Shown: positions 1-22,028 of the stretch, piece by piece
How the letters are laid out: the number at the start of each line of letters is the position of its first letter
How positions within the stretch are numbered: the stretch's first letter is position 1
The notes under the pieces: model-generated
What the model saw: the letters and a program-made list of their open reading frames with translations, nothing else
Databases searched by the model: none
What the model was told of the DNA's origin: nothing
Translations under genes and position numbers: made by a program
NCBI GenBank assembly: GCA_049969715.1
Contig: JBMFOH010000024.1
Coordinates: forward strand, 1 to 25,786
Origin: JBMFOH01 sp049969715 [NCBI: bacterium]
Lineage (GTDB): Bacteria > DUMJ01
DNA length: 25,786 bases
Direction: 5' to 3'

Positions 1-264
1 CGGTCTTTGGAAAGGGGGTGGGCAAAATGATTACAGATCAGATTCCTAGAAGATATATTACCTTTTTTACAGGTCTATGAAATGAATTCTCAATTACTTA
101 ATAGAGCATGGAAAATGTCAAGAGAGCTAAAATTTATGCATATATATGATGCAGTTTATATTGCTTTAGCAGAGGAGATGGAATGTGATTTTTGGACAGC
201 AGACTATAAACTCTATAATATTTTAAAAGAGAGATTCCATTTCTTAAAGTGCATAAAAGAGTAA
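1..264 (+). pseudogene. VapC-type PIN-domain toxin remnant, 5' truncated and frame-broken
   Basis: The C-terminal half of a PIN-domain ribonuclease is readable from about base 43 to the stop at 262-264. It includes YDAVYIALAE and WTAD, which carry two of the PIN acidic metal ligands and match the end of VapC toxins. The only usual start codon in this frame is the ATG at 82, which would give a 60-residue protein lacking the N-terminal catalytic aspartate. The same frame stays protein-like back to 31 but meets a TGA at 28-30. Bases 1-27 read RSLERGWAK, 27-41 read MITDQ in another frame, and the first frame resumes as RFLEDILPFLQVYE. Joined, these give the usual VapC middle (R-G-x-I-T-x followed by a helix). 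I infer a pair of compensating indels in a dead gene. The alternative is that TGA 28-30 ends a vapB antitoxin overlapping an ATG at 27, but the peptide from that ATG is only 17 residues and unlike VapC. The left window edge hides the rest. Confidence 0.6.
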
Positions 265-285
265 CTTTTTGGTTTGTAAATGAGC

Positions 286-361
286 TGGTGCCCCAGGAGG
301 GAATCGAACCCCCAACCAGAGGCTTAGGAGTCCCCTGCTCTGTCCATTGAGCTACTGGGGC
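286..361 (-). tRNA. tRNA-Arg (anticodon CCT)
   Basis: The minus strand folds into a full cloverleaf of 76 nt including an encoded CCA: acceptor GCCCCAG/CTGGGGC with discriminator A, D stem GCTC/GAGC, anticodon loop CTCCTAA (anticodon CCT, reads AGG), variable TGGTT, T stem GGGGG/CCCTC with loop TTCGATT. The anticodon stem GGGGA/GCCTC has one A-G mismatch at 31-39 and one G-U pair. It lies two bases downstream of tRNA-Arg(ACG) and is probably processed from the same transcript. AGG is one of the two favoured arginine codons in this window. Confidence 0.96.
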
Positions 362-363
362 AC

Positions 364-440
364 TGGCACGCCCGAAAGGACTCGAACCTTCAACACGCAG
401 ATTCGTAGTCTGCTGCTCTATCCAATTGAGCTACGGGCGC
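364..440 (-). tRNA. tRNA-Arg (anticodon ACG)
   Basis: The minus strand gives a 77-nt cloverleaf with encoded CCA: acceptor GCGCCCG/CGGGCGT (closing G-U pair) with discriminator G, D stem GCTC/GAGC, anticodon stem GCAGA/TCTGC around CTACGAA (anticodon ACG, presumably A34-to-inosine edited to read CGN), variable GTGTT, T stem GAAGG/CCTTT. It is the promoter-proximal gene of a two-tRNA unit, with its 5' end eight bases after a predicted -10 box. Confidence 0.97.
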
Positions 441-448
441 ACAGTTAT

Positions 449-478
449 ATTTTATCATACTCCTATGATATAATGCAA
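449..478 (-). promoter_or_regulatory. Promoter of the tRNA-Arg pair (extended -10)
   Basis: On the minus strand TATGATAAAAT (459 down to 449) forms an extended -10 box. TTGCAT (478 down to 473) sits 18 bases upstream as the -35. The first tRNA begins eight bases after the -10, as expected for a stable-RNA promoter. The plus strand of the same segment carries TATGATATAAT at 464-474, so the site is an inverted repeat of two -10 elements facing outwards. Confidence 0.6.
464..474 (+). promoter_or_regulatory. Candidate outward promoter, antisense to the polyprenyl synthase 3' end
   Basis: TATGATATAAT is an exact match to the extended -10 form seen at other promoters in this window. It points rightwards, away from the tRNA promoter. 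A transcript would start near 481 and run antisense into the minus-strand gene ending at 485. No convincing -35 is visible, and there is no plus-strand gene for it to serve, so its activity is an inference. Confidence 0.35.
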
Positions 479-484
479 ATCTTG

Positions 485-1492
485 TTACCTTTCTCTCTCT
501 TCTAGATAGGAAGTAAACTCTAAGAGAAGTTTTTTACTCTTTTGTTCGATGTTTAGTTTATCTATAATCTCTCTTGCCTTTGATAGATAGAAAGAGGCCT
601 TTTCCTTGCACTCTTTCTTTACTTCAGCCCTTTCAAGTTCTAATATGATAGATTCTACCTCATTTTTATCCTTCTTCTCCTTTAATATAAGAGGCGCAAG
701 ATTTGGTAACCGATTCATTCCCAATATAATTGGATAGGTCTTTTTGTTCTGCAATAGGTCACTTCCTACAGGTTTTCCAGTAATCTTAGGGTTCCCCCAT
801 AAACCTAATATATCATCGTAGATCTGAAATCCTATACCTAGATTCTTGCCAAATTCTAAAAAACTATCTAAGAACTCTTCTTTCCCTGAAGAGATAACTC
901 CCATTCCAGCACTAGCCTCAAACATTGCTGATGTCTTTCCTTCTACCATTTCTATATATTCTTCTGTAGTTACGATGTCTTTCTTTTCAAAGCTTACATC
1001 GAGGAATTGTCCTTTACAGAGTTTTAAAACTGAGCTATTGAGAAGCATCAAGAGTTTATGTTTTTTTTCTAAGGGAAGAAAGGATTCTATGATAGCTTTA
1101 TAGGCAAGAAATATCATTGCATCTCCTATGTTTATCCCCTGAGGTTCTCCCCATATACTCCATACCGTTTCTCTCCCCCTCCTAAAGATATCTCTATCCT
1201 GTATATCATCATGAACAAGAGAAAAGTTATGAATTAACTCCAAGGCAATCCCTGCAGGATAAGAATCTTCAAGATTTCCTCCTATTAGTTTACATACGAA
1301 ACTGCATAGAAATGGCCTTAATCTCTTCCCTTTATATCCTTCTTCGGCTTGAAAATCTCTGTTTAACCAACCCATATGGTAACGAATAATATTCGTCATA
1401 TTGTCGTTAGGGAGTTTTTCAAAAAAGGATAAAAGATTCCTTTCTATCTCTGTAGATATATGCTTTATTTCGTCCTCAAGCCCTTGGATCAT
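485..1492 (-). CDS. Short-chain polyprenyl diphosphate synthase (FPP/GGPP synthase-like)
   Basis: Cytosolic trans-isoprenyl diphosphate synthase, 335 residues, normal length for the family. It condenses isopentenyl diphosphate with an allylic diphosphate, feeding quinone, carotenoid or cell-wall lipid carriers. Visible motifs are GKRLRP (55-60), first aspartate-rich motif DDIQD (95-99), GDA (123-125), the EGKTSAM lysine region near 186, and second aspartate-rich region DDILG (226-230). The last Asp of the second motif is Gly, as in the DDxLGxWG subfamily, so this need not mean loss of activity. Phe90, five residues before the first motif, with no insertion in that motif, is the pattern linked to geranylgeranyl-length products; product length is an inference. 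It lies 8 bases downstream of rnfC on the same strand, so the two are probably co-transcribed. No terminator is visible after the stop. Confidence 0.9.
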   Translation of the reverse strand: MIQGLEDEIKHISTEIERNLLSFFEKLPNDNMTNIIRYHMGWLNRDFQAEEGYKGKRLRPFLCSFVCKLIGGNLEDSYPAGIALELIHNFSLVHDDIQDRDIFRRGRETVWSIWGEPQGINIGDAMIFLAYKAIIESFLPLEKKHKLLMLLNSSVLKLCKGQFLDVSFEKKDIVTTEEYIEMVEGKTSAMFEASAGMGVISSGKEEFLDSFLEFGKNLGIGFQIYDDILGLWGNPKITGKPVGSDLLQNKKTYPIILGMNRLPNLAPLILKEKKDKNEVESIILELERAEVKKECKEKASFYLSKAREIIDKLNIEQKSKKLLLEFTSYLEERER

Positions 1493-1500
1493 CTCTATGT

Positions 1501-2808
1501 TTATTTCTTCTTTCTTTTAGCAATCTCTAGTTTGGCAAACTTAAATAACTGTACTAGAGGTCTCCTTGCCGGACAGATATATGCGCAGCTCCCACATTCT
1601 ATGCAGTCCATTATATAGAGCCTGGCAGCATCATCGTATCTTTTTTCCTCTACTAGTTTCCCTAACTCTACAGGAAGAAGCCCCATAGGGCAGACATCTA
1701 CACATTTTGCACATCTTAGACAGGGGGATACCTCATCATTTACTTCTGTTAAAGCTATAATTCCTGATGTCCCTTTTATTACAGGAACGTCTAGAGTCCA
1801 TTGTGCTACTCCGGTCATTGGTCCGCCAGATATTACCTTTTTAGTTTCAGACCTAAGCCCAGCATAGTTTAATATCTCTTTAAACTGAGTTCCGATTCTT
1901 ACCCTAAAATTCCCTGGATTTTCTACTCCTTCTCCACTTACAGTTATTACTCTAGAGATAAGAGGAGTTCCTTCACATACTGCCTTTGTTATACTAAATG
2001 CAGTGCCAACATTATTTACTACAACCCCAACATTTAAAGGTAACTTACCAGATGGTACCTCTCTATTAAGTATAGCTTTTATGAGATGTTTCTCAGATCC
2101 TTGAGGGTATCTTGTAGGGAGAGATACTACCTTAATATTCTCATATATCCTTTTAGTCTTTTCAGCTAAAAGTCTTATTGCATCTGTCTTATTATCCTCT
2201 ATTCCTATAATCCCCTGTTTTGCTCCGACTGTCTTCATAATGATCTGAAGACCTATAAGGATATCTTCTGGGGATTCTAGCATCAATCTGTGATCACAGG
2301 TGAGATATGGCTCACACTCTGCCCCATTTAAAATCACTGTATCTATCATTGTTCCTTCTGGAGGAGAGAGTTTTACAGATGTAGGGAATGCTGCCCCTCC
2401 TAGTCCTACGATTCCAGCATCTCTTATTATTCTTATAATTTCTTCCCTACTGAGGTCCTGCCAATTTCTCTTTACTAAGGTCTTTTCTTCTGTAGGGTCT
2501 GATTCTTCCCCTTCTATTATGATAGATGGAACCGTCTCACCAGTTGGAATTGGATGTGGCTCAATAGAAACTACCTTACCAGAGATAGAACTATGAATAG
2601 GGCTTGAAACGAATGCTTTACTATCCCCAATCTTATCACCTATCTTTACCTTATCACCTTGTTTTACCAAGGGTTCTAGAATGGCTCCTGTATGCTGTTT
2701 AAGGGGAATAACTACTCTTTTAGGTATTGGTAAATATTTTATACCAGAAGACTCGCTAAGTTCTTTATACTCTTCTATCTTTAATCCACCACTAAATCTA
2801 AAACTCAT
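1501..2808 (-). CDS. rnfC: RnfC-like electron transport complex subunit
   Basis: 435-residue member of the RnfC/RsxC family, the peripheral NADH/FMN- and Fe-S-binding subunit of the membrane Rnf complex that couples ferredoxin-NAD electron transfer to ion pumping. The N-terminal RnfC domain shows the biotinyl-like segment PIHSSISGKVVSIE near 70-83. The central flavin/NADH domain has GIVGLGGAAFPTSVKL and LNGAECEPYLTCDH. Two ferredoxin-like clusters follow: Cys 363/366/369/373 and 402/405/408/412, each CxxCxxCxxxCP. The ATG has a strong ribosome site (AGGAGGA, four bases away). It is transcribed from the palindromic divergent promoter shared with pyrE. The usual partners rnfD, G, E, A and B do not follow; the next gene is an isoprenoid synthase. 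It could be an Rnf subunit with partners elsewhere or an RnfC-like protein serving another system. Confidence 0.88.
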   Translation of the reverse strand: MSFRFSGGLKIEEYKELSESSGIKYLPIPKRVVIPLKQHTGAILEPLVKQGDKVKIGDKIGDSKAFVSSPIHSSISGKVVSIEPHPIPTGETVPSIIIEGEESDPTEEKTLVKRNWQDLSREEIIRIIRDAGIVGLGGAAFPTSVKLSPPEGTMIDTVILNGAECEPYLTCDHRLMLESPEDILIGLQIIMKTVGAKQGIIGIEDNKTDAIRLLAEKTKRIYENIKVVSLPTRYPQGSEKHLIKAILNREVPSGKLPLNVGVVVNNVGTAFSITKAVCEGTPLISRVITVSGEGVENPGNFRVRIGTQFKEILNYAGLRSETKKVISGGPMTGVAQWTLDVPVIKGTSGIIALTEVNDEVSPCLRCAKCVDVCPMGLLPVELGKLVEEKRYDDAARLYIMDCIECGSCAYICPARRPLVQLFKFAKLEIAKRKKK

Positions 2809-2845
2809 ATATTCCTCCTATCTATTAAAGACATACCTAGGATTA

Positions 2846-2851
2846 ATTATA
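2846..2851 (-). promoter_or_regulatory. Promoter -10 of the rnfC operon (extended -10, half of a palindrome)
   Basis: Minus-strand TATAAT preceded by TG one base upstream (TATGTTATAAT, 2856 down to 2846). A start near 2839 would give a leader of about 30 nt ending in AGGAGGA before the rnfC ATG. The place where its -35 should lie is occupied by the oppositely oriented -10 of pyrE. Confidence 0.6.
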
Positions 2852-2868
2852 ACATAAGATGCTTATGC

Positions 2869-2874
2869 TATAAT
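2869..2874 (+). promoter_or_regulatory. Promoter -10 of the pyrE operon (extended -10, half of a palindrome)
   Basis: Plus-strand TATGCTATAAT at 2864-2874, a perfect TATAAT with the TG extension. A start near 2881 leaves a leader of about 30 nt carrying GGAGAGGTGAG just before the pyrE ATG at 2913. No good -35 is seen; its position overlaps the rnfC -10. Together 2846-2874 form a 13-base inverted repeat (12 of 13 matched) around a 3-base centre. Confidence 0.65.
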
Positions 2875-2912
2875 ATCCTTATGAGACTATTCTTAAACTA
2901 TGGAGAGGTGAG

Positions 2913-3476
2913 ATGGATAATATATTAGAGCTTTTGTATAAGAGAGGGGCGATACTGACAGGACACTTTCTTCTCTCCTCTGGACTGCATAGTGATACCT
3001 ATATTCAATGTGCTCAGGTATCTCAATATCCAGAGGATAATAACTTTTTGGCAAGGGAGATCGCCTCTAATTTTGAGGATAAAGAGATAGATTTAGTAGT
3101 AGGACCTGCCATTGGGGGTATTCTTATAGCTTATGAGGTAGCAAGGGTCCTTAATACTAGGAATATATTTGCAGAAAGAGAGATGGGGGCCCTTACTTTT
3201 AGAAGAGGATTCTTTATAAAAGAGAATGAGAGGGTGCTTATAGTAGAGGATGTTATTACTACTGCTGGTACAGTGAAGGAGTTAAAAGAGCTTGTGACCT
3301 CTTATGGAGGTAATGTAGTAGGAATAGGGAGCATTGTAAAGAGAGGGGATGTAGAAGATTTAGATGGGATTCCCATAAGATCGCTTCTCTATCTGCCCCT
3401 TTCAGTTTATTATCCTTCGGAGTGTCCTCTCTGTAAGGAGAACATACCTATTATAAAGCCAGGGAGTAAAAAGTAG
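2913..3476 (+). CDS. pyrE: Orotate phosphoribosyltransferase
   Basis: Joins orotate to PRPP to give orotidine 5'-monophosphate in de novo pyrimidine synthesis. The protein has 187 residues. The PRPP-binding loop VLIVEDVITTAGTV is at 108-121, the substrate region FLLSSGLHSDTY at 19-30 and GPAIGGI at 64-70. The C-terminal PSECPLCKENIPI (CPLC at 171-174) is typical of the Thermus-type PyrE subfamily. The start is the first ATG after the promoter, with GGAGAGG upstream. The divIVA start codon follows the stop with no gap, so translation is probably coupled. No other pyrimidine gene is adjacent. Confidence 0.94.
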   Translation: MDNILELLYKRGAILTGHFLLSSGLHSDTYIQCAQVSQYPEDNNFLAREIASNFEDKEIDLVVGPAIGGILIAYEVARVLNTRNIFAEREMGALTFRRGFFIKENERVLIVEDVITTAGTVKELKELVTSYGGNVVGIGSIVKRGDVEDLDGIPIRSLLYLPLSVYYPSECPLCKENIPIIKPGSKK

Positions 3477-3914
3477 ATGCCTCTTACCCCTTTAGATGTT
3501 CAAAATGCAGATTTTTCTAGAAGATTTAGGGGATATGATATAGGTGAAGTGAAAGAGTATCTAACCCAGATTGCGGATGAATGGGAGAATCTAATCCACG
3601 AGAATAAAAGACTAGAAACTAGATTAAACGATACCCTAGAACAGCTTGAGTACTACAAGAATATAGAGTCTCTTCTAAAAGAAACATTGTTGTCTACTCA
3701 GAGGGCAATGAATGAGTTAAGAAGGGCAGCAGAAGAAGAAAAGATATCTATAATAAATAAAGCCCACAATGATGCAAAAGAGATACTAAGTAGAGCTGAA
3801 GAGGAGAAAGCTAAGATAGAAATAGAGATAGAGAGGTTAAAGACATTGTCCTCTGAACTAAAGGCGAAGATTATCTCTATTATTGACTCTTATAGAAGAC
3901 TAATCGAGGAATGA
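3477..3914 (+). CDS. divIVA: DivIVA-domain cell division / polar scaffold protein
   Basis: 145 residues. The N-terminal DivIVA signature runs LTPLDVQNADFSRRFRGYDIGEV (residues 3-25; the TPLD and FRGYD cores are characteristic) and is followed by a continuous, strongly charged coiled coil to the end. DivIVA family proteins bind curved membrane at poles and septa and recruit division or segregation factors. It starts directly on the pyrE stop and overlaps the next gene by ATGA. At 145 residues it is a compact member without a C-terminal extension. Which family branch it belongs to (DivIVA, GpsB-like, SepIVA) cannot be settled here. Confidence 0.9.
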   Translation: MPLTPLDVQNADFSRRFRGYDIGEVKEYLTQIADEWENLIHENKRLETRLNDTLEQLEYYKNIESLLKETLLSTQRAMNELRRAAEEEKISIINKAHNDAKEILSRAEEEKAKIEIEIERLKTLSSELKAKIISIIDSYRRLIEE

Positions 3915-4861
3915 GGGCTTTAGGTTTATACTCTGGAGGATTGGATAGTACTTTAGCCATAAAGATTATGATGGCTCATAATATAGAGGTTATTCCTATA
4001 GGATATAGAACCCCGTTCTTTTCTCCGGATGTAGAGTATGGAGAGAGGGTCATTGGGGTACCTATAGTGATAGTGGATGTCTTTGAGGAATACATAGATG
4101 TTCTCCTTTCTCCGTCTTATGGATATGGAAGTAATATGAATCTTTGTATAGACTGTCATAGATTTATGATAAAAAAGACAAAATTATTACTTCCTCTCTA
4201 TGGGGCAAGTTTTATAATAACAGGTGAGGTATTAGGTGAAAGACCAATGTCTCAAAATAAATGGGCTTTAAAGGAGGTAGAGAAAGAAGCAGAAGGACTT
4301 GTGGTAAGACCCCTCTCAGGGAAGCTACTTCCTCCTACTATACCTGAACAGAATGGTTGGATAAATAGGGAGTGGCTCTATGATATCTCTGGAAGGAAAA
4401 GGGATAGACAGATGAAATTAGCAGAGCTTTTTGGTATCAAAGAGTACAAGAATCCGGCTGGTGGATGCCTTCTTACCGATATTAATTTTTCTAAGAGATT
4501 GAGATTCCTCTTAGGTTTGAATACAAGGCCTTCAAGAGAAGAACTTGAGCTTCTGAGGTTTGGACGTCATTTCTATGTTAATGACAGCTGGATCATAATA
4601 GGTCGTAATGAGAGGGAGAATATTATCATTAAAGATGCTTCTCTATGGGAATTTAAGTTGTTTTCTATTGATTATCCTGGTCCTACTGGTATAATAGTAA
4701 GAGGTGACTCCCTAGAGGTAGGAGCAAGGTTATTAGTTAGGTATAGTGATGCTCCTAAGGGTATGAATTCTAGAGTAAGGGTATTTAAAAAGACCGGTGA
4801 GAGTTATATATTAGAAGTAGATGGAATGCCAGAAGAAGAGATTGAGAAAATAAGGATATAG
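3911..4861 (+). CDS. PP-loop tRNA thiolation enzyme (ThiI/MnmA-like) with C-terminal NFACT-R-like domain
   Basis: 316 residues. The N-terminal ATP-pyrophosphatase has the PP-loop YSGGLDS (7-13), used by ThiI, MnmA and TtuA enzymes to adenylate a uridine before sulfur transfer. Candidate catalytic or metal-binding cysteines are CxxC at 79/82 (NLCIDCHRF) and Cys186 in NPAGGCLLTD. There is no THUMP domain as in canonical ThiI. The C-terminal part from about 215 (LRFGRHFYVNDSWIIIGRNEREN) looks like the NFACT-R_2 RNA-binding domain known to be fused to ThiI-like PP-loop domains. A role in tRNA 2- or 4-thiouridine formation is inferred; the exact nucleotide is unknown. The start overlaps the divIVA stop (ATGA). 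Often annotated only as a ThiI family or DUF814 protein. Confidence 0.8.
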   Translation: MRALGLYSGGLDSTLAIKIMMAHNIEVIPIGYRTPFFSPDVEYGERVIGVPIVIVDVFEEYIDVLLSPSYGYGSNMNLCIDCHRFMIKKTKLLLPLYGASFIITGEVLGERPMSQNKWALKEVEKEAEGLVVRPLSGKLLPPTIPEQNGWINREWLYDISGRKRDRQMKLAELFGIKEYKNPAGGCLLTDINFSKRLRFLLGLNTRPSREELELLRFGRHFYVNDSWIIIGRNERENIIIKDASLWEFKLFSIDYPGPTGIIVRGDSLEVGARLLVRYSDAPKGMNSRVRVFKKTGESYILEVDGMPEEEIEKIRI

Positions 4862-4875
4862 GTTGGTGATTTATA

Positions 4876-5913
4876 ATGAGTTATGGAAGTTTGTATTATC
4901 CTGAGCTCTTTTCTCCTATTACCATAGGGAATATGACCTTTAAAAATCGGATAGTTATGCCTCCTATGGCAACAAATTTCGGTATAGTGACAAGGCAGTC
5001 TATAGCATACTATAGAAAGAGGGCATTAGGGGGTGTAGGGTGTATTATAGTAGAAGGAACCCCTACTCATTTATTCTATGACCATAGATTCCAAGATGGA
5101 CTTAAGAGACTTGCTGAAGCCATAAAGTTAGATGATGTTAAAGCTGTCATCCAGCTTACCATAAAGAGTAATCCTCAACCACGTAAGGATGTTACAGATA
5201 TTCCTATAGATGAAGTGAAGGGTTTTATTGATGCTCTTGTATATGCTGCTAGGATTTCATTTGATACAGGTTTTGATGGAGTAGAGCCTCATGGTGCCCA
5301 CGGATTTATAATGAATAGATTCTTTTCCCCAATATCTAATCAGCGCAAAGATGAATATGGTGGAGACCTCTATAATAGGATGAGATTTGGATTAGATGTA
5401 GTTAGGAATATAAAGTCTGCTGTTGGAGAAGGCTTTTTAATCTTTTATCGACATACCCCTGTAGAATGGCAGGATAACGGATATACTCTAGAGGATAGTA
5501 TTGCCTTTGGTAAGGAGTTGAAGAAGGTAGGACTAGATGTATTTGATATATCTCCAAGTACTCCTAGTGGCTCCTACCAGTATGGAGTATTTGCCAAGGA
5601 GATAAGAGAGAAGGTAGATATACCTGTTGTAGCCGTTGGAAAGATGCACGTTCCAGAAATTGCAAGTAAGATGATTAGAGAAAATTATGCTGACCTTGTA
5701 GCTATAGGTAGGGCACTTCTTGCCGATCCATTCTTACCTAAGAAGCTTGAAGAGGGTAGACTTTCTTCTATAAACGTTTGTAAACAATGTAATATTAAGT
5801 GTCATGGATATTTAAGAAGAGGATTGCCAATATCTTGTGTAAATAATCATTCTGTAGGTAGGGAATACTTTGAGATTGGATTTTGGACTAAGGGGGACAA
5901 TGATGTTTATTGA
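4876..5913 (+). CDS. Old Yellow Enzyme-family NADH:flavin oxidoreductase, barrel-only with Fe-S motif
   Basis: 345-residue FMN-binding TIM barrel of the OYE / 2,4-dienoyl-CoA reductase family. Key segments are LFSPITIGNMTFKNRIVMPPM at the N-terminus, GFDGVEPHGAHGF (132-144, active-site His139 and His142), SPISNQRKDEYGGDLYNRMRF, and the FMN-phosphate region VVAVGKM...LVAIGRALLADP. Cys302, 305, 309 and 321 (CxxCxxxCx11C) match the [4Fe-4S] ligands of dienoyl-CoA reductase-type members. It lacks their C-terminal NAD(P)H/FAD domain. The loop that normally follows the QL strand near residue 94 (HxGR and the proline-rich segment) is strongly shortened. It reduces an unknown substrate, probably an activated alkene, using an unknown donor. 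It overlaps the following Mth938-domain gene. Confidence 0.88.
   Translation: MSYGSLYYPELFSPITIGNMTFKNRIVMPPMATNFGIVTRQSIAYYRKRALGGVGCIIVEGTPTHLFYDHRFQDGLKRLAEAIKLDDVKAVIQLTIKSNPQPRKDVTDIPIDEVKGFIDALVYAARISFDTGFDGVEPHGAHGFIMNRFFSPISNQRKDEYGGDLYNRMRFGLDVVRNIKSAVGEGFLIFYRHTPVEWQDNGYTLEDSIAFGKELKKVGLDVFDISPSTPSGSYQYGVFAKEIREKVDIPVVAVGKMHVPEIASKMIRENYADLVAIGRALLADPFLPKKLEEGRLSSINVCKQCNIKCHGYLRRGLPISCVNNHSVGREYFEIGFWTKGDNDVY
5891..5896 (+). promoter_or_regulatory. Ribosome binding site deciding the Mth938-domain start
   Basis: AGGGGG lies inside the end of the flavoprotein gene and six bases before the ATG at 5903 (three before the ATG at 5900). This favours a start at 5900 or 5903 over the upstream in-frame ATG at 5870. 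Confidence 0.55.
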
Positions 5914-6244
5914 ACACTATGAGTTTGGCAAGATTGTTATAGATGGTATATCTTATACCTCAGATATTATCATTTATCCGGACCATATAGAGGATGACTG
6001 GTGGAGAGAAGAGGGGCACCAGTTGAATGTATCTGATATAATAGAAGTGATAGAAGTAAAACCTAAGGTCCTCATTGTAGGAACAGGTGCCTATGGGATG
6101 ATGTCTGTATCATCCGAGGTAGAAAGGTATCTTAGAGAGAATGGAATCCAGCTTATTGCTGAGAACACTAGTAGAGCTATAGAGATTTATAATCAGACTA
6201 CTGATAAGTCAAAAGTAGTATGTGCGTTACACCTTACCTGCTAG
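5900..6244 (+). CDS. Mth938/AAMDC-domain protein (DUF498 family)
   Basis: About 114 residues of the Mth938 fold (PF04430), shared with human AAMDC and NDUFAF3. The diagnostic parts are FIEHYEFGKIVIDGISYTSDIIIYP, then DDWWREEGHQL, and KVLIVGTGAYGMM, where a nucleotide- or ligand-like glycine loop sits. No biochemical role can be assigned with confidence for bacterial members. I take the start as the ATG pair at 5900/5903, which has a purine-rich ribosome site. The longer frame from 5870 would only add residues translated from inside the flavoprotein gene. Overlap with the flavoprotein suggests co-expression and perhaps joint function. A tRNA gene begins one base after the stop. Confidence 0.8.
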   Translation: MMFIEHYEFGKIVIDGISYTSDIIIYPDHIEDDWWREEGHQLNVSDIIEVIEVKPKVLIVGTGAYGMMSVSSEVERYLRENGIQLIAENTSRAIEIYNQTTDKSKVVCALHLTC

Positions 6245-6245
6245 T

Positions 6246-6332
6246 GGAGGGGTGGCAGAGTGGTTGATTGCGGCGGTCTTGAAAATCGCTGGCTGATGAG
6301 GCCCGGGGGTTCGAATCCCTCCCCCTCCGCCA
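6246..6332 (+). tRNA. tRNA-Ser (anticodon TGA)
   Basis: 87 nt with encoded CCA. Acceptor GGAGGGG/CCCCTCC with discriminator G, anticodon stem GCGGT/ATCGC around CTTGAAA (anticodon TGA), a long variable arm as expected for serine, and T stem GGGGG/CCCTC with loop TTCGAAT. It begins one base after the stop codon of the Mth938-domain gene, and no separate promoter is seen, so it is likely cut out of the pyrE operon transcript. Confidence 0.96.
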
Positions 6333-6368
6333 TATTATTTTTCTACTAAAACTTAAAGGACTTTTATA

Positions 6369-7505
6369 GTGAGAAATAGAGAGGGAAATTTTTTTGTAGC
6401 TACATTTCTTTTTTGGGCGTCACTCTATATTTATGTCCCTATTCTTTCTCCATATGCCGAGCATCTAGGGGGATCTCTTCAGGTGATAGGTCTAATTATT
6501 GGTTCTTATGGTTTTGCTCAATTTCTCTTCAGGATCCCTTTAGGTATATGGTCTGATAAGGTGGGTAAGAGAAAGACCTTTGTTATTGTGGGTTTTATCC
6601 TTTCTATTATAAGTGGTTTAGGTCTTGCACTTTCTAGAAACCCCATAGGGCTCTTAATCTTTAGAGGAATAAGTGGTATCTCTGCAGCTACTTGGGTTGA
6701 TTTTACTGTCCTTTTCTCTAGCTATTTTGATCCATCAAAGGTGATAGCTTCCTTAAGTTTGTTAAATTTTTATTCCCAAATAGGTCAACTTGTTGCCAAT
6801 CTCTTAAGTGGATTTATTGCACAGAGATTTGGATGGACGTATCCTTTTTATTCTGCAGGTATTATTGCCTCATTAGGACTAATTTTTAGTTTCTTTATAT
6901 ATGAAAAAGATTCTCCCAATTCCAAAGAGATATCCCTTAAAGAACTCCTTGCTACAGGTAAGGAGCCTTTACTCCTCTTATCTTCTGTTTTGGCGATCTT
7001 GCTTCAATATTTTAGTTTCATTGTAAGCTACGGTTTCTTATCTCTATATGCTACAAACATTGGGGTTTCTAAGAGTGAATTGGGTATCCTTACGTTTATT
7101 GCTTCTGTCCCTGCTGCTATCGCCTCTCTCCTTAACAGTGGTTCTTTTATGAGAAGGTTTAGTCAAAGGTATATCCTTGTCTTTGGGTTTATACTTACAT
7201 CTATCTCCTCAATATTTATTCCGTTTACCAAGAGTTTCTTTATGCTCTCCTTCCTTCAGTGTCTAGGTGGCATAGGTAGAGGGATTAATTATCCCATACT
7301 TATGGGTTTGAGCATTCTAAATATTCCAGAAGAAAAGAGATCTACTGCCATGGGTTTTTTCCAAGCTCTATATGGTATAGGAATGTTTGGTGGTCCATTT
7401 ATTGGTGGATATATAGGTTCTATATGGGGTTTAAATGGAATATTTATATCTACGGGTATTGTTGTAGCGGTAGCTGCAATTCTGTCTAATTGTATATCTA
7501 GGTGA
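6369..7505 (+). CDS. MFS transporter
   Basis: 378-residue major facilitator superfamily permease with about 12 hydrophobic helices in two halves. MFS motif A is at the loop between helices 2 and 3 (LGIWSDKVGKRKTF, 58-71), and a weaker repeat lies in the second half. The GTG start at 6369 is preceded by AAGGA eight bases away. The C-terminal GFFQALYGIGMFGGPFIGG fits drug/sugar-type exporters. The substrate cannot be read from the sequence. It follows tRNA-Ser by 36 bases on the same strand, without a visible terminator between. The rpsO promoter begins inside its last codons. Confidence 0.85.
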   Translation: MRNREGNFFVATFLFWASLYIYVPILSPYAEHLGGSLQVIGLIIGSYGFAQFLFRIPLGIWSDKVGKRKTFVIVGFILSIISGLGLALSRNPIGLLIFRGISGISAATWVDFTVLFSSYFDPSKVIASLSLLNFYSQIGQLVANLLSGFIAQRFGWTYPFYSAGIIASLGLIFSFFIYEKDSPNSKEISLKELLATGKEPLLLLSSVLAILLQYFSFIVSYGFLSLYATNIGVSKSELGILTFIASVPAAIASLLNSGSFMRRFSQRYILVFGFILTSISSIFIPFTKSFFMLSFLQCLGGIGRGINYPILMGLSILNIPEEKRSTAMGFFQALYGIGMFGGPFIGGYIGSIWGLNGIFISTGIVVAVAAILSNCISR

Positions 7506-7518
7506 TTTATGTTAAAAT
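7490..7518 (+). promoter_or_regulatory. Promoter of the rpsO-pnp operon
   Basis: TTGTAT (7490-7495), 17-base spacer, TAAAAT (7513-7518) preceded by TATG and one base, giving an extended -10. The -35 and part of the spacer lie in the end of the MFS gene. A start near 7525 leaves a leader of about 42 nt. Confidence 0.65.
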
Positions 7519-7549
7519 TAATTATAAAGTTTAATAAGATTTTATTTTT

Positions 7550-7557
7550 GGAGGTGA
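7550..7557 (+). promoter_or_regulatory. Strong ribosome binding site of rpsO
   Basis: GGAGGTGA lies nine bases before the TTG at 7567. This supports TTG as the real start of the S15 gene, since no ATG or GTG is at a suitable distance and the protein then begins in the usual S15 manner. Confidence 0.7.
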
Positions 7558-7566
7558 ATAGTAGAT

Positions 7567-7836
7567 TTGAGCCTTAGTAAAGAAGAAAAGTTAGAAGTTA
7601 TAAGTAAATACCAGCTCCATAGCAGAGATACAGGTTCTATAGAGGTACAGATAGCTCTACTGTCTGAAAGGATAAATAGACTTACTGAACATCTAAAGAT
7701 CCATAAGAAGGATTTTCACTCTAGACGTGGTTTGCTTATGATGGTAGGATATAGAAGAAGACTATTGGAATATCTTCGTAAGAATAATCTGGATAAATAT
7801 CAAGAGATTATTAAAGATCTAGGACTCAGAGCATAA
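7567..7836 (+). CDS. rpsO: 30S ribosomal protein S15
   Basis: 89 residues, the standard S15 length. Family features are [22 protein letters not shown] at the start, [32 protein letters not shown] in the middle and [12 protein letters not shown] near the end, covering the 16S rRNA-binding helices. S15 is a primary binder of the 16S central domain. The start is TTG, read as Met. The gene directly precedes pnp (4 bases after the stop), the nearly universal rpsO-pnp pair. In other bacteria S15 represses its own translation; the short leader here shows no structure I could call. Confidence 0.97.
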
Positions 7837-7840
7837 TAGT

Positions 7841-9997
7841 ATGGTAAGATTGGAAAGAAATTTTTTGGGACGTCAACTTATTTTTGAGACAGGGAGGTTG
7901 GCTAAGCAAGCAACCTCTTCTGTTTTAGTGAGATATGGAGATACTGTAGTTCTTGTTACAGTGGTGATCTCAGATGAGCCTGCTGAAGAGGTTGATTTTC
8001 TTCCCCTTACAGTAGATTTTGAAGAAAGATTCTATGCTGCCGGTAAGATACCAGGTGGCTTTATAAAGAGAGAAGGCAGGCCTAGCGAGAGGGCTATCCT
8101 GAGTGCTAGGATCGTTGACCGTCCTCTACGTCCTCTCTTCAAAGAAGGTTTTTTCTACGAGACCCAGATAATAGTGACTACTCTGTCTGCAGATCAAGAG
8201 AATCCACCAGAGCTTTTGGCTTTGTGGGGAGCCTCAGCTGCGTTATGTCTTACTGGAGCTCCCTTTAATGGACCCATAGGGGCAGTGAAGGTGGCACTCA
8301 TTAATGGAGAGCTTGTCTTCAATCCTTCACTTTCTCAGTTAGATGAGAGTGATATGGACCTTTTGCTTGTTGGTAATAGAGAGAATGTAGTTATGATTGA
8401 GACTGAGGCAAAAGAGGTCCCTGAAGAGATATTTATAGAGGCAATGAACAGAGCTATGGAATATATAAGAGAGAATATCTCTCTACAGGAGGAATTTATA
8501 GAAGAGGTTAAAAAGGAATATCCTCTTCTGAATGAGTATCCAATAATAGAGCCTGACCCTGAGTTGGTGAGTTTTATAAGAAGTACTACATATGAACGAT
8601 TAAATGAGATATTAAGGATTAAAAGTAAAAAGGAAAGAGAAAAGAGATTGAATGAACCATTTGAGCTTATCGAATCTAAACTGGTAGAGATGCAAGAAGA
8701 AGGTGTGGCTCTTAAGGAAAAACTTGATAGTAATCCTAGTATGGTAAAGATGATATTTAAGAGTATGGAAAGAGAGATTCTTGAGCGTATAGTGTTGGAT
8801 GAGCATCAGAGATCTGATGGAAGGGCTTTCAATGAGGTTAGGCCTATCTCCTGTGAGGTAGGAGTACTTCCTAGAACACATGGGAGTGCAATATTTACAA
8901 GGGGAGAGACACAGGTGCTTTCGGTAGTTACATTAGGTTCTAAAGGGGAGGAACAGATCATAGATGACCTTGGTATAGAGGAAAGCAAGAGATATATGCA
9001 TCATTATAACTTTCCACCATACTCTACAGGAGAGGTAAGACCCCTTAGAGGACCAGGTAGAAGAGAGATAGGACATGGGGCATTGGCTGAGAAGGCGTTA
9101 CTCCCTGTGATTCCTGATGAGGAAGCTTTTCCATATACTATCAGAGTAGTCTCTGATGTACTTGAGTCTAACGGCTCTACCTCTATGGCTAGTGCCTGTG
9201 GAAGCACCCTTGCTCTTATGGATGCTGGTGTTCCTATAAAGGCTCCAGTAGCTGGTATAGCAGTAGGCCTTATCTCTAGAGGTGATGATGAATGGGTTAC
9301 CCTTACAGATATACAGGGTCTAGAGGATGCCTATGGAGAGATGGATTTTAAAGTTACTGGTACTAAAAGGGGAATTACTGCCATTCAGCTTGATATAAAG
9401 AGATATAGTGGCATTCCAATATATATGTTGGTAAAGGCGCTAGAACAGGCAAAAGAGGCTAGATTATTTATAATAGATAAGATCTTAGAGACTATCCCAG
9501 GACCTAGGCCTACGCTGTCACCTTATGCTCCTAGGATTATCTCTCTTACTATACCGCAGGACAAGATAGGAGAACTGATAGGTCCTGGAGGTAAGGTAAT
9601 AAAGAAGATTATAGAGGAAACTGATGTAAAGATAGATATAGAGCAAGATGGTAAGGTTTATATATATTCCCAGGATGAGTCTTCTGGTAAGTTGGCTCAA
9701 AGTCGTATAGAGGAGATAGCAAAGGAGGTAGAGACAGGAAAGCTCTATGAAGGAAAGGTTACTAGGGTAGCAGACTATGGGCTCTTTGTTGAAGTACTCC
9801 CTGGGAAGGAAGGGTTACTTCATATCTCTCAGATGGAGAAGTTGAAGGCACCAATAAACAAGGTATTTAAGCCTGGGGATTCGGTCTTGGTTAAGGTGCA
9901 AGAGATAGATAACCTTGGAAGAATAAATCTTACTAGAAGAGGAATAAAATCTACAGAGGATGAAGGTAGGAGGAGTACTTATAAACGCCAGAATTGA
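7841..9997 (+). CDS. pnp: Polyribonucleotide nucleotidyltransferase (PNPase)
   Basis: Phosphorolytic 3'-5' exoribonuclease of mRNA decay, 718 residues, full length. Two RNase PH domains flank an alpha-helical domain. The first starts NFLGRQLIFETGRLAKQA; the second carries EGEMDFKVTG-like and LEQAKEARLFI catalytic-core segments. A KH domain follows at about 569-636 with the GxxG loop IGPGGKVI, then an S1 domain at about 637-700 (VTRVADYGLFVEVLPGKEGLLH). There is no good ribosome site before the ATG; initiation is probably coupled to rpsO, whose stop is four bases away. The end overlaps the next start as TTGA. Confidence 0.97.
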   Translation: MVRLERNFLGRQLIFETGRLAKQATSSVLVRYGDTVVLVTVVISDEPAEEVDFLPLTVDFEERFYAAGKIPGGFIKREGRPSERAILSARIVDRPLRPLFKEGFFYETQIIVTTLSADQENPPELLALWGASAALCLTGAPFNGPIGAVKVALINGELVFNPSLSQLDESDMDLLLVGNRENVVMIETEAKEVPEEIFIEAMNRAMEYIRENISLQEEFIEEVKKEYPLLNEYPIIEPDPELVSFIRSTTYERLNEILRIKSKKEREKRLNEPFELIESKLVEMQEEGVALKEKLDSNPSMVKMIFKSMEREILERIVLDEHQRSDGRAFNEVRPISCEVGVLPRTHGSAIFTRGETQVLSVVTLGSKGEEQIIDDLGIEESKRYMHHYNFPPYSTGEVRPLRGPGRREIGHGALAEKALLPVIPDEEAFPYTIRVVSDVLESNGSTSMASACGSTLALMDAGVPIKAPVAGIAVGLISRGDDEWVTLTDIQGLEDAYGEMDFKVTGTKRGITAIQLDIKRYSGIPIYMLVKALEQAKEARLFIIDKILETIPGPRPTLSPYAPRIISLTIPQDKIGELIGPGGKVIKKIIEETDVKIDIEQDGKVYIYSQDESSGKLAQSRIEEIAKEVETGKLYEGKVTRVADYGLFVEVLPGKEGLLHISQMEKLKAPINKVFKPGDSVLVKVQEIDNLGRINLTRRGIKSTEDEGRRSTYKRQN

Positions 9998-11232
9998 TCT
10001 TACTAGATAAGATACCTGGTGCCAAATCAGTTAGTATAGGATTTTGGTATTTTACTGGCTCCCGAATAGAGAGAGAGGGAGAAAAAGGTTATTCTCATCT
10101 TATAGAACATTTGATATTCCAAGGAACAGAGGATAAGGATGCAAAGACTCTGGCTTTAGCCTTTGATAAACTTGGAACAGAGGCTAATGCATTTACTGAA
10201 AGAGACAGTACCTGTTTCTATGTGAAGGTACTGAAAAGGTACGCATTAGAGGCGATAGAGCTATTGGCTGAGATGCTAAGTTTTCCTGCCTTTAGAGAAA
10301 AGGATGTAGAAAAAGAAAAGAAGGTAGTTATAGAGGAGTTTAAATCCTATATGGATAACCCAGAACAGGTAATTCATGATATGGGACTTAAGGCACTTTG
10401 GGGAGAGCACCCTCTAAGTAACTCCCCTCTCGGTGAGATAGATGACCTTCTTTCCGCTGACCCAGATAAGTTGAAGAGATTTTGGAGTAGGACTTATACC
10501 TCAGATAAGCTTCTTGTAGCGATTGCTGGAGATTTGGATGAGAATGATGTAAAAAGGGTTATTTCTTCTTATCCGTTATTTTCAAGGGGGAATAGTTCTC
10601 TAGATTTTGAAGATGCTCCTTCTTTAAACCCCCAACTTTTATATAGGGAGGATGATACCGAAATTACCCATATCGTTTTGATAGGTCCTGGACCTTCATA
10701 CGGGGATCGGGATTTCTATAGCGCCAATGCATTAACGGTAATCCTATCCAATAGTATGGGGGCAAGATTATTTCAGAAGATAAGAGAAGAGAGAGGTCTA
10801 GCATACTCTGTTTATTCATATTTTCTCCCATTTAAGGATACTGGTGTATTTGCTTCATATGTGGGAACTGGGAGTAACTCTAATGAGGAGGTTCTAAGAA
10901 TTATCCTCGATGAATATAGAGGTCTCTGTCATGACCTTATTACAAAAGAGGAATTAGATAGGGCTAAGGCGCATTTATCCTCAGGAATGATACTTGGTAC
11001 AGAGGGGACCTTTGGAAGAATGGAGTATATAGCAAGGTCTTACTATTCTTACGGTAGAATAGTAAGTATAGATGAGATGCTTTCATATATCCAAGATATA
11101 ACTCCAGAGTCTATAAAAGAAGCCTGTTGCAGACTTTTTAATGGTGGTTTTGGGATAGCAGTGTTGGGTAGAGAGGGTAAGAAGATAGGGGAATCCTTGT
11201 GGAAGGTATTAAGCTCTTACTCAAGAGATTAA
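9994..11232 (+). CDS. M16-family zinc metallopeptidase (mitochondrial processing peptidase-like)
   Basis: 412-residue M16B peptidase. The inverted zinc motif HLIEH is at 35-39 and the distal glutamate is in VVIEEF (114/115). The second half holds the pseudo-symmetric domain with IREERGLAYSVYSY. The TTG at 9994 overlaps the pnp stop (TTGA). The protein begins MILLDKIPGAKSVSIGFW, about 12-15 residues shorter at the N-terminus than most homologues, which have a DNGLRV-type first strand. The position directly after pnp is the same as the M16 gene in Bacillus and clostridia. No signal peptide, so it is likely cytosolic, degrading short peptides or leader sequences. Confidence 0.92.
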   Translation: MILLDKIPGAKSVSIGFWYFTGSRIEREGEKGYSHLIEHLIFQGTEDKDAKTLALAFDKLGTEANAFTERDSTCFYVKVLKRYALEAIELLAEMLSFPAFREKDVEKEKKVVIEEFKSYMDNPEQVIHDMGLKALWGEHPLSNSPLGEIDDLLSADPDKLKRFWSRTYTSDKLLVAIAGDLDENDVKRVISSYPLFSRGNSSLDFEDAPSLNPQLLYREDDTEITHIVLIGPGPSYGDRDFYSANALTVILSNSMGARLFQKIREERGLAYSVYSYFLPFKDTGVFASYVGTGSNSNEEVLRIILDEYRGLCHDLITKEELDRAKAHLSSGMILGTEGTFGRMEYIARSYYSYGRIVSIDEMLSYIQDITPESIKEACCRLFNGGFGIAVLGREGKKIGESLWKVLSSYSRD

Positions 11233-11639
11233 ATGATGATAGTATTATCCCTACATATATGAGTAGAGGGGCGTCAGGTCTGGACCTCTACTCAGCGGAG
11301 GATAAGATAATTCCCTCTGGTAGGTGGAGTATTGTTGGGACAGGTATTGCTATAGAGGTTCCTAATGGATATGAAGGAGAGGTAAGGTCTAGGAGCGGAT
11401 TAGCTAAGGATTTTGGGGTATTCGTGTTAAATAGTCCTGGGACTATAGACAGTGATTATAGGGGAGAGATAAAGGTGATTCTTATGAATCTTGGGGATGA
11501 ACCCTTTAGTATAAAAAAAGGGGATAGGATAGCTCAATTAGTGATAAGTCCAGTTGTAAAGGTGGATATCCTTGAGGTAGAAGAGCTTTCTCCTAGTGAA
11601 AGGAATAGTGGCGGATTTGGACACACTGGTAGGAGGTAA
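11199..11639 (+). CDS. dut: dUTP diphosphatase
   Basis: Hydrolyses dUTP to dUMP and pyrophosphate, keeping uracil out of DNA and supplying thymidylate synthesis. It has 146 residues and all five motifs of trimeric dUTPases: RGASGLDLYS, SRSGLA, GVFVLNSPGTIDSDYRGE (with the catalytic Asp), KGDRIAQLVI, and RNSGGFGHTGR as the C-terminal lid. The GTG start gives the normal beginning MEGIKLLLKRL and lies 34 bases inside the peptidase gene, with AGGGGA upstream. The lid motif differs slightly from RGxGGFGSTG but keeps the GGFG core. The stop overlaps the dapB ribosome site. Confidence 0.95.
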   Translation: MEGIKLLLKRLNDDSIIPTYMSRGASGLDLYSAEDKIIPSGRWSIVGTGIAIEVPNGYEGEVRSRSGLAKDFGVFVLNSPGTIDSDYRGEIKVILMNLGDEPFSIKKGDRIAQLVISPVVKVDILEVEELSPSERNSGGFGHTGRR

Positions 11640-11645
11640 GATATT

Positions 11646-12416
11646 ATGATCAATGTGATAGTTTGTGGTGCTTGTGGTAAGATGGGGCAGGAAGTAATAA
11701 AGGCTATCTCGAGAGAATCTGATATAAAGGTGGTAGGAGGCATAGATGTTAAAGGGGTAGGGGAGACTGTGCTTGGTGTGCATATAAGAGATGACCTAGA
11801 GGCAGTTATAAAAGAGGCTAACCCTGATGCAATTGTAGATTTTACAAGAAGAGATGCAGCGTTAAAGAGTATAAAGATAGGATTACAGAATAATATAACT
11901 ATGATTGTTGGTACAACCGGATTTACTCAGGAAGATCTTAATGAAATTAAAGAATCTGTTGCAGCCTATAGAGGCAATGTCCTTATAGTACCAAATTTCG
12001 CCATAGGGATGGTCCTTCTTATGAAATGTGCAGAGCTAGTTGCTCCATTTATGGAGAACGTGGAGATTATAGAACTTCATCACGATGGTAAATTAGATTC
12101 TCCATCTGGGACAGCTATTGCTACAGCTAATACTATTTCAAATCGTAAGAGATTCTATCCGGCTCCTCACTCTTCGGATTCAAGGGGATTAAATGTGGAG
12201 GGGATAGCTATCCATAGCGTGAGACTTCCTGGACTGGTAGCTCATCAAGAGGTGATATTTGGAGCTCTAGGGCAGACCCTTACATTGAGGCATGATTCTA
12301 TATCTAGAGAGTCATTTATGCCTGGGCTCATATATGCATTGAGAAATATGCAGAAGATTAAAGGTTTTGTTTATGGTTTAGACAAATTATTATTTCCGGA
12401 AGGTCTGGTGGTATAA
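11646..12416 (+). CDS. dapB: 4-hydroxy-tetrahydrodipicolinate reductase
   Basis: Second committed step of the diaminopimelate/lysine pathway, reducing hydroxytetrahydrodipicolinate with NAD(P)H. It has 256 residues. The nucleotide-binding loop GACGKMG is at 8-14, VGTTGFT in the middle, and the catalytic/substrate motif ELHHDGKLDSPSGTA near 150, with the conserved HH, Lys and SGT. RGLNVEGIAIHSVRLPG follows as in the family. AGGAGGTAA overlaps the dut stop and gives a strong ribosome site. dapA follows after two bases. Confidence 0.96.
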   Translation: MINVIVCGACGKMGQEVIKAISRESDIKVVGGIDVKGVGETVLGVHIRDDLEAVIKEANPDAIVDFTRRDAALKSIKIGLQNNITMIVGTTGFTQEDLNEIKESVAAYRGNVLIVPNFAIGMVLLMKCAELVAPFMENVEIIELHHDGKLDSPSGTAIATANTISNRKRFYPAPHSSDSRGLNVEGIAIHSVRLPGLVAHQEVIFGALGQTLTLRHDSISRESFMPGLIYALRNMQKIKGFVYGLDKLLFPEGLVV

Positions 12417-12418
12417 CT

Positions 12419-13300
12419 ATGTTTGGAAGGCTTATTACAGCAATGGCGACACCATTTAAGGAGGATTATAGCCTAGATGTAAAGAGAGCCTGTGAATTGG
12501 TTGAGAAACTTATAGATGATGGTTCTGATGGGATACTTGTGGCAGGGACTACAGGAGAATCTCCAACCCTCTCTACGGAAGAAAAGCTTACCCTTTTTAG
12601 GGAGATAAAGAATATAGTAAGGGATAAATCTGCAGTGATTGCAGGGACAGGTAACTATAATACTAAAGAAAGTATAGAACTCACCAAAGAGGCAGAATCA
12701 ATTGGTGTTGATGGGATACTTTTGGTAGCTCCTTACTATAATAAACCTTCGCAGGATGGTTTATATGCGCATTTTAAAGTTATAGCTCAGGCTACAAAAC
12801 TGCCTGTTATCCTCTATAATATCCCATCGAGGACAGGAGTTAATATCCTGCCAAGTACCGTTATACGTTTGGCTAAGGATGTGAAGAATATTGTTGCCAT
12901 AAAGGAAGCCAGTCAGAGTACGGATCAGGCTGTAGAGATCCTTAGGGGAATAGAGAGAGACGATTTCGTTGTATACAGTGGGGACGATTCCTTTACTATG
13001 CCACTTATGAGTGTAGGGGGATATGGCATAATAAGTGTTGCATCTCATATAGTGGGAAGGAAGATAAAGAAGATGCTGGAAGATTTTGTCTCTGGAAATG
13101 TAAGGAGTGCAATAGAACTTAATAAGGAACTATTCCCCATATTTAAGGCGCTATTTGTGACAACAAATCCTGTACCTTTAAAGGAAGCAATGAAGCTTAT
13201 AGGTTTTGATATAGGACCTCCAAGGTTACCTTTAGTGAGGGCAGGAGAAAAGGAGATAAATGTAATAAAGGAGGCGTTAAGGTTCCTCAGTCTTATATAA
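12419..13300 (+). CDS. dapA: 4-hydroxy-tetrahydrodipicolinate synthase
   Basis: Condenses pyruvate with aspartate semialdehyde, the step before DapB. It is a 293-residue TIM barrel. The Schiff-base lysine is Lys162 (VAIKEAS), catalytic Tyr133 and Arg138 are in LYNIPSRTG, and Thr45/46 are in VAGTTGESPTL. It is separated from dapB by two bases, so the two pathway genes are co-translated. RNase J follows, the same order as dapA-rnjB in Bacillus. No lysine riboswitch is seen, consistent with an internal place in a long operon. Confidence 0.96.
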   Translation: MFGRLITAMATPFKEDYSLDVKRACELVEKLIDDGSDGILVAGTTGESPTLSTEEKLTLFREIKNIVRDKSAVIAGTGNYNTKESIELTKEAESIGVDGILLVAPYYNKPSQDGLYAHFKVIAQATKLPVILYNIPSRTGVNILPSTVIRLAKDVKNIVAIKEASQSTDQAVEILRGIERDDFVVYSGDDSFTMPLMSVGGYGIISVASHIVGRKIKKMLEDFVSGNVRSAIELNKELFPIFKALFVTTNPVPLKEAMKLIGFDIGPPRLPLVRAGEKEINVIKEALRFLSLI

Positions 13301-13314
13301 TAAGTTAAGAAGAT

Positions 13315-16802: not shown

Positions 16803-16849
16803 GCAGCTTTTCTAATTTTATTAAAAATCTTGTATAGGAGGGATAAAGA

Positions 16850-17836: not shown

Positions 17837-17840
17837 AGGA

Positions 17841-19340: not shown

Positions 19341-19342
19341 AG

Positions 19343-21309: not shown

Positions 21310-22028
21310 ATGGGAGAAAACTTGGGGATATTCTTAAAGAGAGAAGAGAGGCCCTTAACCTAAGTATAAAAGAAGTTGCTGATGCTACTAAGTTGAAGAA
21401 GAGTATAATTGTTGCGCTAGAAAATGGAGACTATAGAGAACTTCCAGAGCCTGTGTATATCCGTGGCTTTTTGAAGTTGTATGCCTTAGTATTGGGGCTA
21501 GACTACAGAGAATTGTCTCTTTTATTGGACAAAGAATTAGAATCAGCTGGTAAGGTAGAGAAGGAGTATGAGGAAGAAAAACGTAATTTATTCTTGCCTT
21601 TACTTACTCTGATTATCGTTATAGGAGTAGTTGTCTCTATATTTTATTTCCTATCCTTGAGAAGGCAGTTGCAAAATCCTAAGATCCTAGGGCAACCCCC
21701 ACCCATATCTAATCCTATACAACAGCCAGTTCAAGGGTCTTCTCAGTCTTCTTCACCTGAAGGTGCAAAGAAGATTGAACCTATCAAGAAAGAGGTAGTA
21801 GTAGATATAGAGGGCTTAGATTATTCTTGGCTTAGGGTAACAGTTGATAATAACAAGGTTTTTGAAGGATTTATCAATAAAGGCGACCACTTTGAATGGA
21901 AAGGCGTAGATAGGATAAAGATAAGAATTGGAAATGCTGGTGGTGTCAGTGTTATTGTAAATGGTCAGGATTTGGGAGTCTTAGGGAAAAGAGGAGAAGT
22001 TTTGGAGAGAGAATTTTTGCCAAAATGA
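21306..22028 (+). CDS. rodZ: RodZ-like cell shape protein
   Basis: 240 residues. The N-terminal Xre-type helix-turn-helix (about 4-70) starts LGDILKERREALNLSIKEVADATKLKK and contains ENGDYRELPEPVYIRGFLKLYA, diagnostic for RodZ. One membrane helix lies near 93-115 (LFLPLLTLIIVIGVVVSIFYF). A proline/serine/glutamine-rich linker and a C-terminal DUF4115-like beta domain (about 165-240) complete it. RodZ anchors MreB to the membrane in rods. The GTG start overlaps the preceding stop. The position before rimO and cinA matches the Bacillus ymfM locus. Confidence 0.9.
   Translation: MNGRKLGDILKERREALNLSIKEVADATKLKKSIIVALENGDYRELPEPVYIRGFLKLYALVLGLDYRELSLLLDKELESAGKVEKEYEEEKRNLFLPLLTLIIVIGVVVSIFYFLSLRRQLQNPKILGQPPPISNPIQQPVQGSSQSSSPEGAKKIEPIKKEVVVDIEGLDYSWLRVTVDNNKVFEGFINKGDHFEWKGVDRIKIRIGNAGGVSVIVNGQDLGVLGKRGEVLEREFLPK

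What the first reader, a model, noticed from the sequence alone, without database searches (positions are those of the whole stretch)
2846..2874. Divergent rnfC/pyrE promoter built as a palindrome of two extended -10 boxes
The sequence ATTATAACATAAG-atg-CTTATGCTATAAT is an inverted repeat with 12 of 13 positions matched. Each arm is a complete extended -10 (TATGnTATAAT), one facing rnfC and one facing pyrE. The expected -35 place of each promoter is the -10 of the other, so polymerase binding one way should block the other. Both leaders are about 30 nt and end in good ribosome sites. This could act as a symmetric switch between redox/isoprenoid genes and the pyrimidine/division/tRNA operon, or as an operator for a dimeric regulator.
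Basis: partly seen in the sequence, partly recalled or inferred. Interest (0 to 1): 0.6.

Follow-up and report, generated by a model that had tools for sequence, protein, structure and literature searches.

The report
Two ordinary promoters, back to back
A short palindrome between two genes that point away from each other is most likely just two standard start signals for RNA polymerase placed back to back; the mirror symmetry comes from both being the same signal and is not evidence of a special switch.

Summary
ATTATAACATAAG-ATG-CTTATGCTATAAT lies at 2846-2874, 12 of 13 positions paired, between divergent rnfC and pyrE. Each arm is an exact extended -10 (TATGnTATAAT); the hexamers are 17 bp apart. 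Both are probably real promoters: of ten window sites with at most one mismatch, five lie in 676 noncoding bases (0.38 expected), two of them upstream of tRNA-Arg and rpsO-pnp. The palindrome needs no further explanation: its only mismatch is the motif's free base, pairing stops at the hexamers' outer edges, and with both -10s fixed 18% of shuffles give an equally good one. In 299 genomes of one phylum, back-to-back extended -10s occur at spacings of 6-36 bp, and none of 68 matches has 17 (38 for the reversed control, so many may be chance). A second pair in this window has 14 bp. A symmetric switch or dimeric operator is not supported. Mutual exclusion of polymerases is likely but inferred; at five E. 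coli bidirectional promoters basal competition was negligible, though it arose at higher activity (PMC12825309). No relative close enough for a conservation test was found. Verdict: ordinary overlapping divergent promoters, low interest.

The parts
2864..2874 (+). extended -10 (TATGCTATAAT) of the pyrE promoter; hexamer 2869-2874
   Evidence: exact match to TATGNTATAAT; 5 of 10 window sites with at most 1 mismatch are in noncoding DNA, 0 of 1000 shuffles of that DNA reach 5
2846..2856 (-). extended -10 (TATGTTATAAT) of the rnfC promoter; hexamer 2851-2846
   Evidence: exact match to TATGNTATAAT
2846..2874 (.). inverted repeat formed by the two extended -10 boxes, 12 of 13 paired, 3-base loop
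2881..2912 (+). predicted pyrE leader, 32 nt, GGAG 7 nt before the ATG
   Evidence: read; start site inferred, not mapped
2809..2838 (-). predicted rnfC leader, 30 nt, AGGAGG 5 nt before the ATG
   Evidence: read; start site inferred, not mapped
1501..2808 (-). rnfC (RnfC_N, Complex1_51K, SLBB, 4Fe-4S)
   Evidence: Pfam; phmmer to PDB chains 7zc6_C (named RnfC) and 9eri_C
485..1492 (-). polyprenyl synthetase gene, same direction, 8 bp behind rnfC
   Evidence: PF00348
2913..3476 (+). pyrE (phosphoribosyltransferase domain)
3477..3914 (+). divIVA-like gene
   Evidence: PF05103
3911..4861 (+). ThiI-like / NFACT-R_2 protein
   Evidence: PF18297 over its cut-off; PF02568 (ThiI) 19.5 bits, just under its cut-off of 20.5

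Best explanation
The palindrome is two independent housekeeping (sigma-70/sigma-A type) extended -10 promoters placed back to back in a short divergent intergenic region, one for rnfC plus the polyprenyl synthetase gene and one for pyrE-divIVA-thiI-like. Shown from sequence: the two exact motifs, their orientation and spacing, ribosome sites, and that the symmetry is no more than the two motifs imply. Inferred: that both are used, where they start, that they depend on TGn rather than a -35, and that only one polymerase can sit there at a time (recalled footprints of about -55 to +20 would share about 68 bp), giving at most modest competition. No switch or special regulator is needed.
For: Exact motifs on both strands. 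Motif sites are concentrated in noncoding DNA: 5 of 10, shuffles of that DNA give a mean of 0.378 and 0 of 1000 reach 5. The motif with one mismatch stands upstream of tRNA-Arg (449-459 -) and of rpsO-pnp (7508-7518 +; rpsO named by eye). The dyad's mismatch is at the n (2852/2868), the six positions tested outside the hexamers all fail to pair, and the palindrome arises in 3642 of 20000 shuffles once both -10s are fixed. A scan that requires a -35 lists neither promoter, as expected of extended -10 promoters. Back-to-back TGnTATAAT pairs occur in 52 of 299 genomes of the phylum of G016, with 68 forward matches against 38 for the reversed pattern (sums are mine). Thirty of those 68 were stored; 27 could be classed: 9 divergent, 12 tandem, 6 inside ORFs, and 3 lacked an ORF on one side.
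Against: No transcript data, so neither start is proven. At up to 2 mismatches the motif is at chance level in the window (68 found, 69.19 expected), and the -35/-10 scan of 1-20000 also finds only the chance number (54 against 54.3). The reversed control reaches 38 against 68, so many of the pairs elsewhere may be chance. The exact 17-bp register is unusual (0 of 68) and has to be taken as coincidence. Competition is not excluded: PMC12825309 saw it when activity was raised, and two consensus extended -10s might be strong. No close relative was found to show that both promoters are kept, and the organism's promoter habits are known only from this window.
Confidence: 0.82

Rival explanations
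1. A symmetric polymerase-exclusion switch: because each -10 is the other's -35, polymerase chooses one direction, and activation of one gene set represses the other.
For: Predicted footprints (recalled size) overlap almost fully (positions). PMC12825309 shows that raising one direction can repress the other. pLS20 Pc/Pr is a Gram-positive switch that includes overlapping divergent promoters.
Against: PMC12825309 found basal competition negligible at five tested promoters. The PMC4207663 discussion, citing others, says a switch needs promoters of different activity plus a regulator acting differently on them; here the boxes are the same apart from the n base and no regulator is known. The 17-bp register was not seen elsewhere (0 of 68).
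Confidence: 0.1
2. A palindromic operator for a dimeric repressor or activator that controls both operons, overlapping the promoters.
For: The 29-bp dyad is centred between the promoters, and CATAAG-ATG-CTTATG pairs perfectly.
Against: Symmetry stops at the hexamer edges and fails at the motif's free base; only two pairs (A-T, G-C) go beyond the promoter elements. The inner dyad at up to 2 mismatches has 2 matches (itself and one that starts just right of it), 2.0 expected. The other pair in the window has 14 bp between hexamers and lacks the inner arm. Apart from a RodZ-like ORF judged by eye I noticed no regulator among the window's ORFs (only six ORFs were scanned with Pfam).
Confidence: 0.06
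3. Only one of the two -10 boxes is a working promoter; the other is a chance AT-rich match.
For: Consensus matches alone are not proof; at up to 2 mismatches TATGNTATAAT is at chance level in the whole window.
Against: Both are exact, both face a gene with a good ribosome site, and exact matches in noncoding DNA are expected 0.015 times and found 3.
Confidence: 0.08

Closest known systems
Extended -10 sigma-70/sigma-A promoter
   Same: TATGnTATAAT on both strands and a poor -35; in B. methanolicus TGN precedes 33% of -10 motifs (PMC4342826, passages)
   Different: nothing seen in sequence; starts not mapped
Overlapping divergent promoters, e.g. Pc/Pr of plasmid pLS20 (PMC4207663, passages)
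   Same: two opposed promoters whose polymerase sites overlap
   Different: pLS20 has promoters of unequal strength, a regulator (RcoLS20) and looping; none is seen here
Bidirectional promoters of Warman, Grainger and colleagues (PMC12825309, abstract and four named sections; PMC10268837, part 1 of 3)
   Same: pseudo-symmetric promoter DNA, divergent mRNAs, opposing polymerases cannot bind together
   Different: theirs share one -10 element, with starts most often 18, also 10 and 23 bp apart; here two separate hexamers and predicted starts 43 bp apart

Membership tests
Extended -10 promoter | TG one base upstream of a TATAAT-like hexamer | tested here: met
   exact TATGnTATAAT on both strands
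Extended -10 promoter | often lacks a good -35 hexamer | tested here: met
   ATTATA at the 17-bp place, 3 of 6 to TTGACA on each side; neither site listed by the -35-requiring scan
Extended -10 promoter | transcript starts about 7 nt downstream | not testable with these tools
   no transcript data; candidates A2881 (+), A2838 (-)
Overlapping divergent promoters | opposed promoters upstream of divergent genes | tested here: met
   by sequence:
Overlapping divergent promoters | polymerase binds only one at a time | not testable with these tools
   predicted footprints (recalled size) share about 68 bp; no binding data
Bidirectional promoter (Warman/Grainger sense) | starts either side of or within one shared -10 element, usually 18, 10 or 23 bp apart | tested here: not met
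   hexamers 17 bp apart and not shared; predicted starts 43 bp apart (one search read); starts not mapped
Promoter switch from overlapping divergent promoters (pLS20 type) | unequal promoters plus a regulator acting differently on them | tested here: inconclusive
   boxes are the same apart from the n base; no regulator noticed among the window ORFs, which does not exclude one elsewhere
Operator of a dimeric regulator | symmetry beyond what the promoter elements impose | tested here: not met
   two extra pairs only; 3642 of 20000 conditional shuffles reach the same symmetry
Operator of a dimeric regulator | dyad kept in relatives | not testable with these tools
   no genome held for the window and no close relative found

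The most novel reading that the evidence does not exclude
The exact 17-bp register makes each -10 serve as the other's degenerate -35, so that one 29-bp palindrome is a self-exclusive, balanced two-way promoter that couples an Rnf/isoprenoid unit to a pyrimidine/division unit by polymerase competition alone.
Probability: 0.05. Interest if true: 0.4.

Novelty: new member of a known kind. Interest (0 to 1): 0.12.

Why it matters
It matters little as biology, since overlapping divergent promoters are a known arrangement. It is useful as a caution: two consensus promoters facing apart are by construction an inverted repeat, so a palindrome in a divergent intergenic region should be tested against the promoter motif (where the mismatch and the edges fall) before it is read as an operator or switch.

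Tried and rejected
The noncoding set used is my own feature list and counts 1-285 and the window's end as noncoding.

Relatives: PyrE in genome contigs gave 42 loci, best 54% identity. Searched with six neighbouring window proteins at E 1e-4, 3 of the 42 (L002, L005, L037) had an RnfC-like stretch (29-39% over 112-157 aa), on the same strand downstream and so not divergent; none matched the other five. Several of the 42 loci have short flanks. RnfC in 61 genomes of the phylum of G004: 57 matched at E 0.001 (many only by shared domains), best 53%. I fetched the best 14 places plus G010 (found) with upstream DNA: 0 of 15 showed PyrE, DivIVA or other window neighbours there. L088 (G010) has only about 130 bp upstream, and downstream DNA was not fetched for most. 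RNase J in 299 genomes of the phylum of G016: best 56%; the class of its best hit has nothing beyond that hit's own score (0 of 26 at E 1e-196; the hit itself was 1.4e-196). The phylum of G010 gave 0 of 17 at 1e-100 (an empty answer proves little). PNPase in 16 genomes: best 53%. Viral contigs: no RnfC relative, one PNPase match at 43%.

Rfam: nothing but three tRNAs at gathering threshold. Papers: the 2021 bidirectional-promoter paper and a 2011 paper on overlapping promoters (both DOIs recalled) were not held and not read. PMC4469952 was seen as passages and not used. The other papers in the listings were not opened, except those cited.

Full report
Observation. The 29-mer is at 2846-2874 as stated, with 12 of 13 positions paired and a 3-base loop. 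It is the only inverted repeat of its class in the window (arm 13, at least 12 matches, loop 0-20), and dinucleotide shuffles of the 104-bp intergenic region give one in 18 of 2000. It lies between rnfC (1501-2808, -) and pyrE (2913-3476, +), whose domains were checked by Pfam and, for RnfC, by phmmer against PDB sequences.

Are the promoters real? Exact TATGNTATAAT occurs three times in the window: 464-474 (+), 2846-2856 (-) and 2864-2874 (+). With at most one mismatch there are ten sites, and five of them lie in noncoding DNA, 676 bases by my feature list. Shuffled noncoding segments give a mean of 0.378 and never five in 1000; exact sites are expected 0.015 times and found three times. Two of the other noncoding sites are the likely promoters of tRNA-Arg (449-459, -) and of rpsO-pnp (7508-7518, +; rpsO named by eye). 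Against this: at up to two mismatches the motif is at chance level over the whole window (68 against 69.19), and the generic -35/-10 scan of 1-20000 finds only the chance number (54 against 54.3) and lists neither promoter. At the 17-bp place each has ATTATA, 3 of 6 to TTGACA. They are therefore best read as extended -10 promoters. PMC4342826 (passages) reports TGN before 33% of B. methanolicus -10 motifs and notes that extended -10 promoters often lack a -35, though in that species the -35 was not less conserved beside TGN.

Does the palindrome mean anything more? Any two identical promoters facing apart form an inverted repeat. Here the pairing begins exactly at the outer edge of each hexamer, the six positions tested outside all fail to pair, and the one mismatch (2852/2868) is the motif's free base. 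Only two further pairs lie inside. With both extended -10s held fixed, 3642 of 20000 shuffles of the other intergenic letters give at least 12 of 13. The inner dyad at up to two mismatches is found twice, itself included, with 2.0 expected. The symmetry is thus adequately explained as a by-product of the two promoters.

Does the 17-bp register mean anything? In 299 genomes of the phylum of G016 (Bacillota by record title) the pattern ATTATANCA-N{0,30}-TGNTATAAT has 68 forward matches in 52 genomes, against 38 for the same pattern read backwards (sums are mine), so many matches may be chance. Hexamer spacings run from 6 to 36 bp and none is 17. About 2.2 would be expected if all spacings were equal, so there is no sign of a preferred register, and zero is not itself significant. 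Some of the 68 are the same sequence in two genomes (G106/G173, and both pairs of G105/G140). Of the 30 stored as loci, 27 could be classed by a simple ORF rule: 9 divergent, 12 tandem, 6 inside ORFs; 3 could not. In the window itself a second back-to-back pair, 449-459 (-) and 464-474 (+), has 14 bp between hexamers.

Mechanism. Candidate starts are A2881 and A2838. With a polymerase footprint of about -55 to +20 (recalled) the two sites share about 68 bp, so simultaneous occupancy is unlikely. This does not make a switch. Warman et al. 2026 (PMC12825309; abstract, Introduction, two Results sections and Discussion read) found basal activity of five E. coli bidirectional promoters too low for competition, but substantial competition when one direction was made stronger; whether two consensus extended -10s reach that level here is unknown. 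The discussion of PMC4207663 (passages) cites work that a switch needs unequal promoters and a regulator acting differently on them. Here the boxes are the same and no regulator was noticed among the window ORFs. By the Warman/Grainger definition this is not a 'bidirectional promoter', because the -10 elements are not shared; it is a pair of overlapping divergent promoters.

Limits. No whole genome is held for the window and no close relative was found, so conservation is untested. In 0 of 15 RnfC loci from other genomes was PyrE or another window neighbour found in the upstream DNA fetched, one of them with only about 130 bp, so the pairing of these genes is at least not widespread in that sample. 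I had no transcript data.

Verdict. It is most likely two ordinary extended -10 promoters back to back; the switch and operator readings are not supported. Interest is low.

Noticed in passing
window 449-474: A second back-to-back pair of extended -10 boxes (TATGATAAAAT on -, TATGATATAAT on +, 14 bp between hexamers) between the idsA end and tRNA-Arg. The minus box is the likely tRNA-Arg promoter; the plus box would drive an antisense transcript into idsA.
   Followed up: partly
   Followed up: partly
window 485-2808: rnfC stands with a polyprenyl synthetase gene and tRNA genes; I recognised no rnfD/G/E/A/B beside it in the window (ORF list, read by eye).
   Followed up: no
window 7567-25046: Gene order rpsO-pnp-M16 peptidase-dut-dapB-dapA-rnj-ftsK-BMP/ABC transporter-rodZ-rimO-cinA-thpR resembles the Bacillota order (order recalled, gene names by eye), yet PNPase and RNase J are at most 53% and 56% identical to the genomes sampled, so the organism may be a deep or unsampled lineage.
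   Followed up: partly
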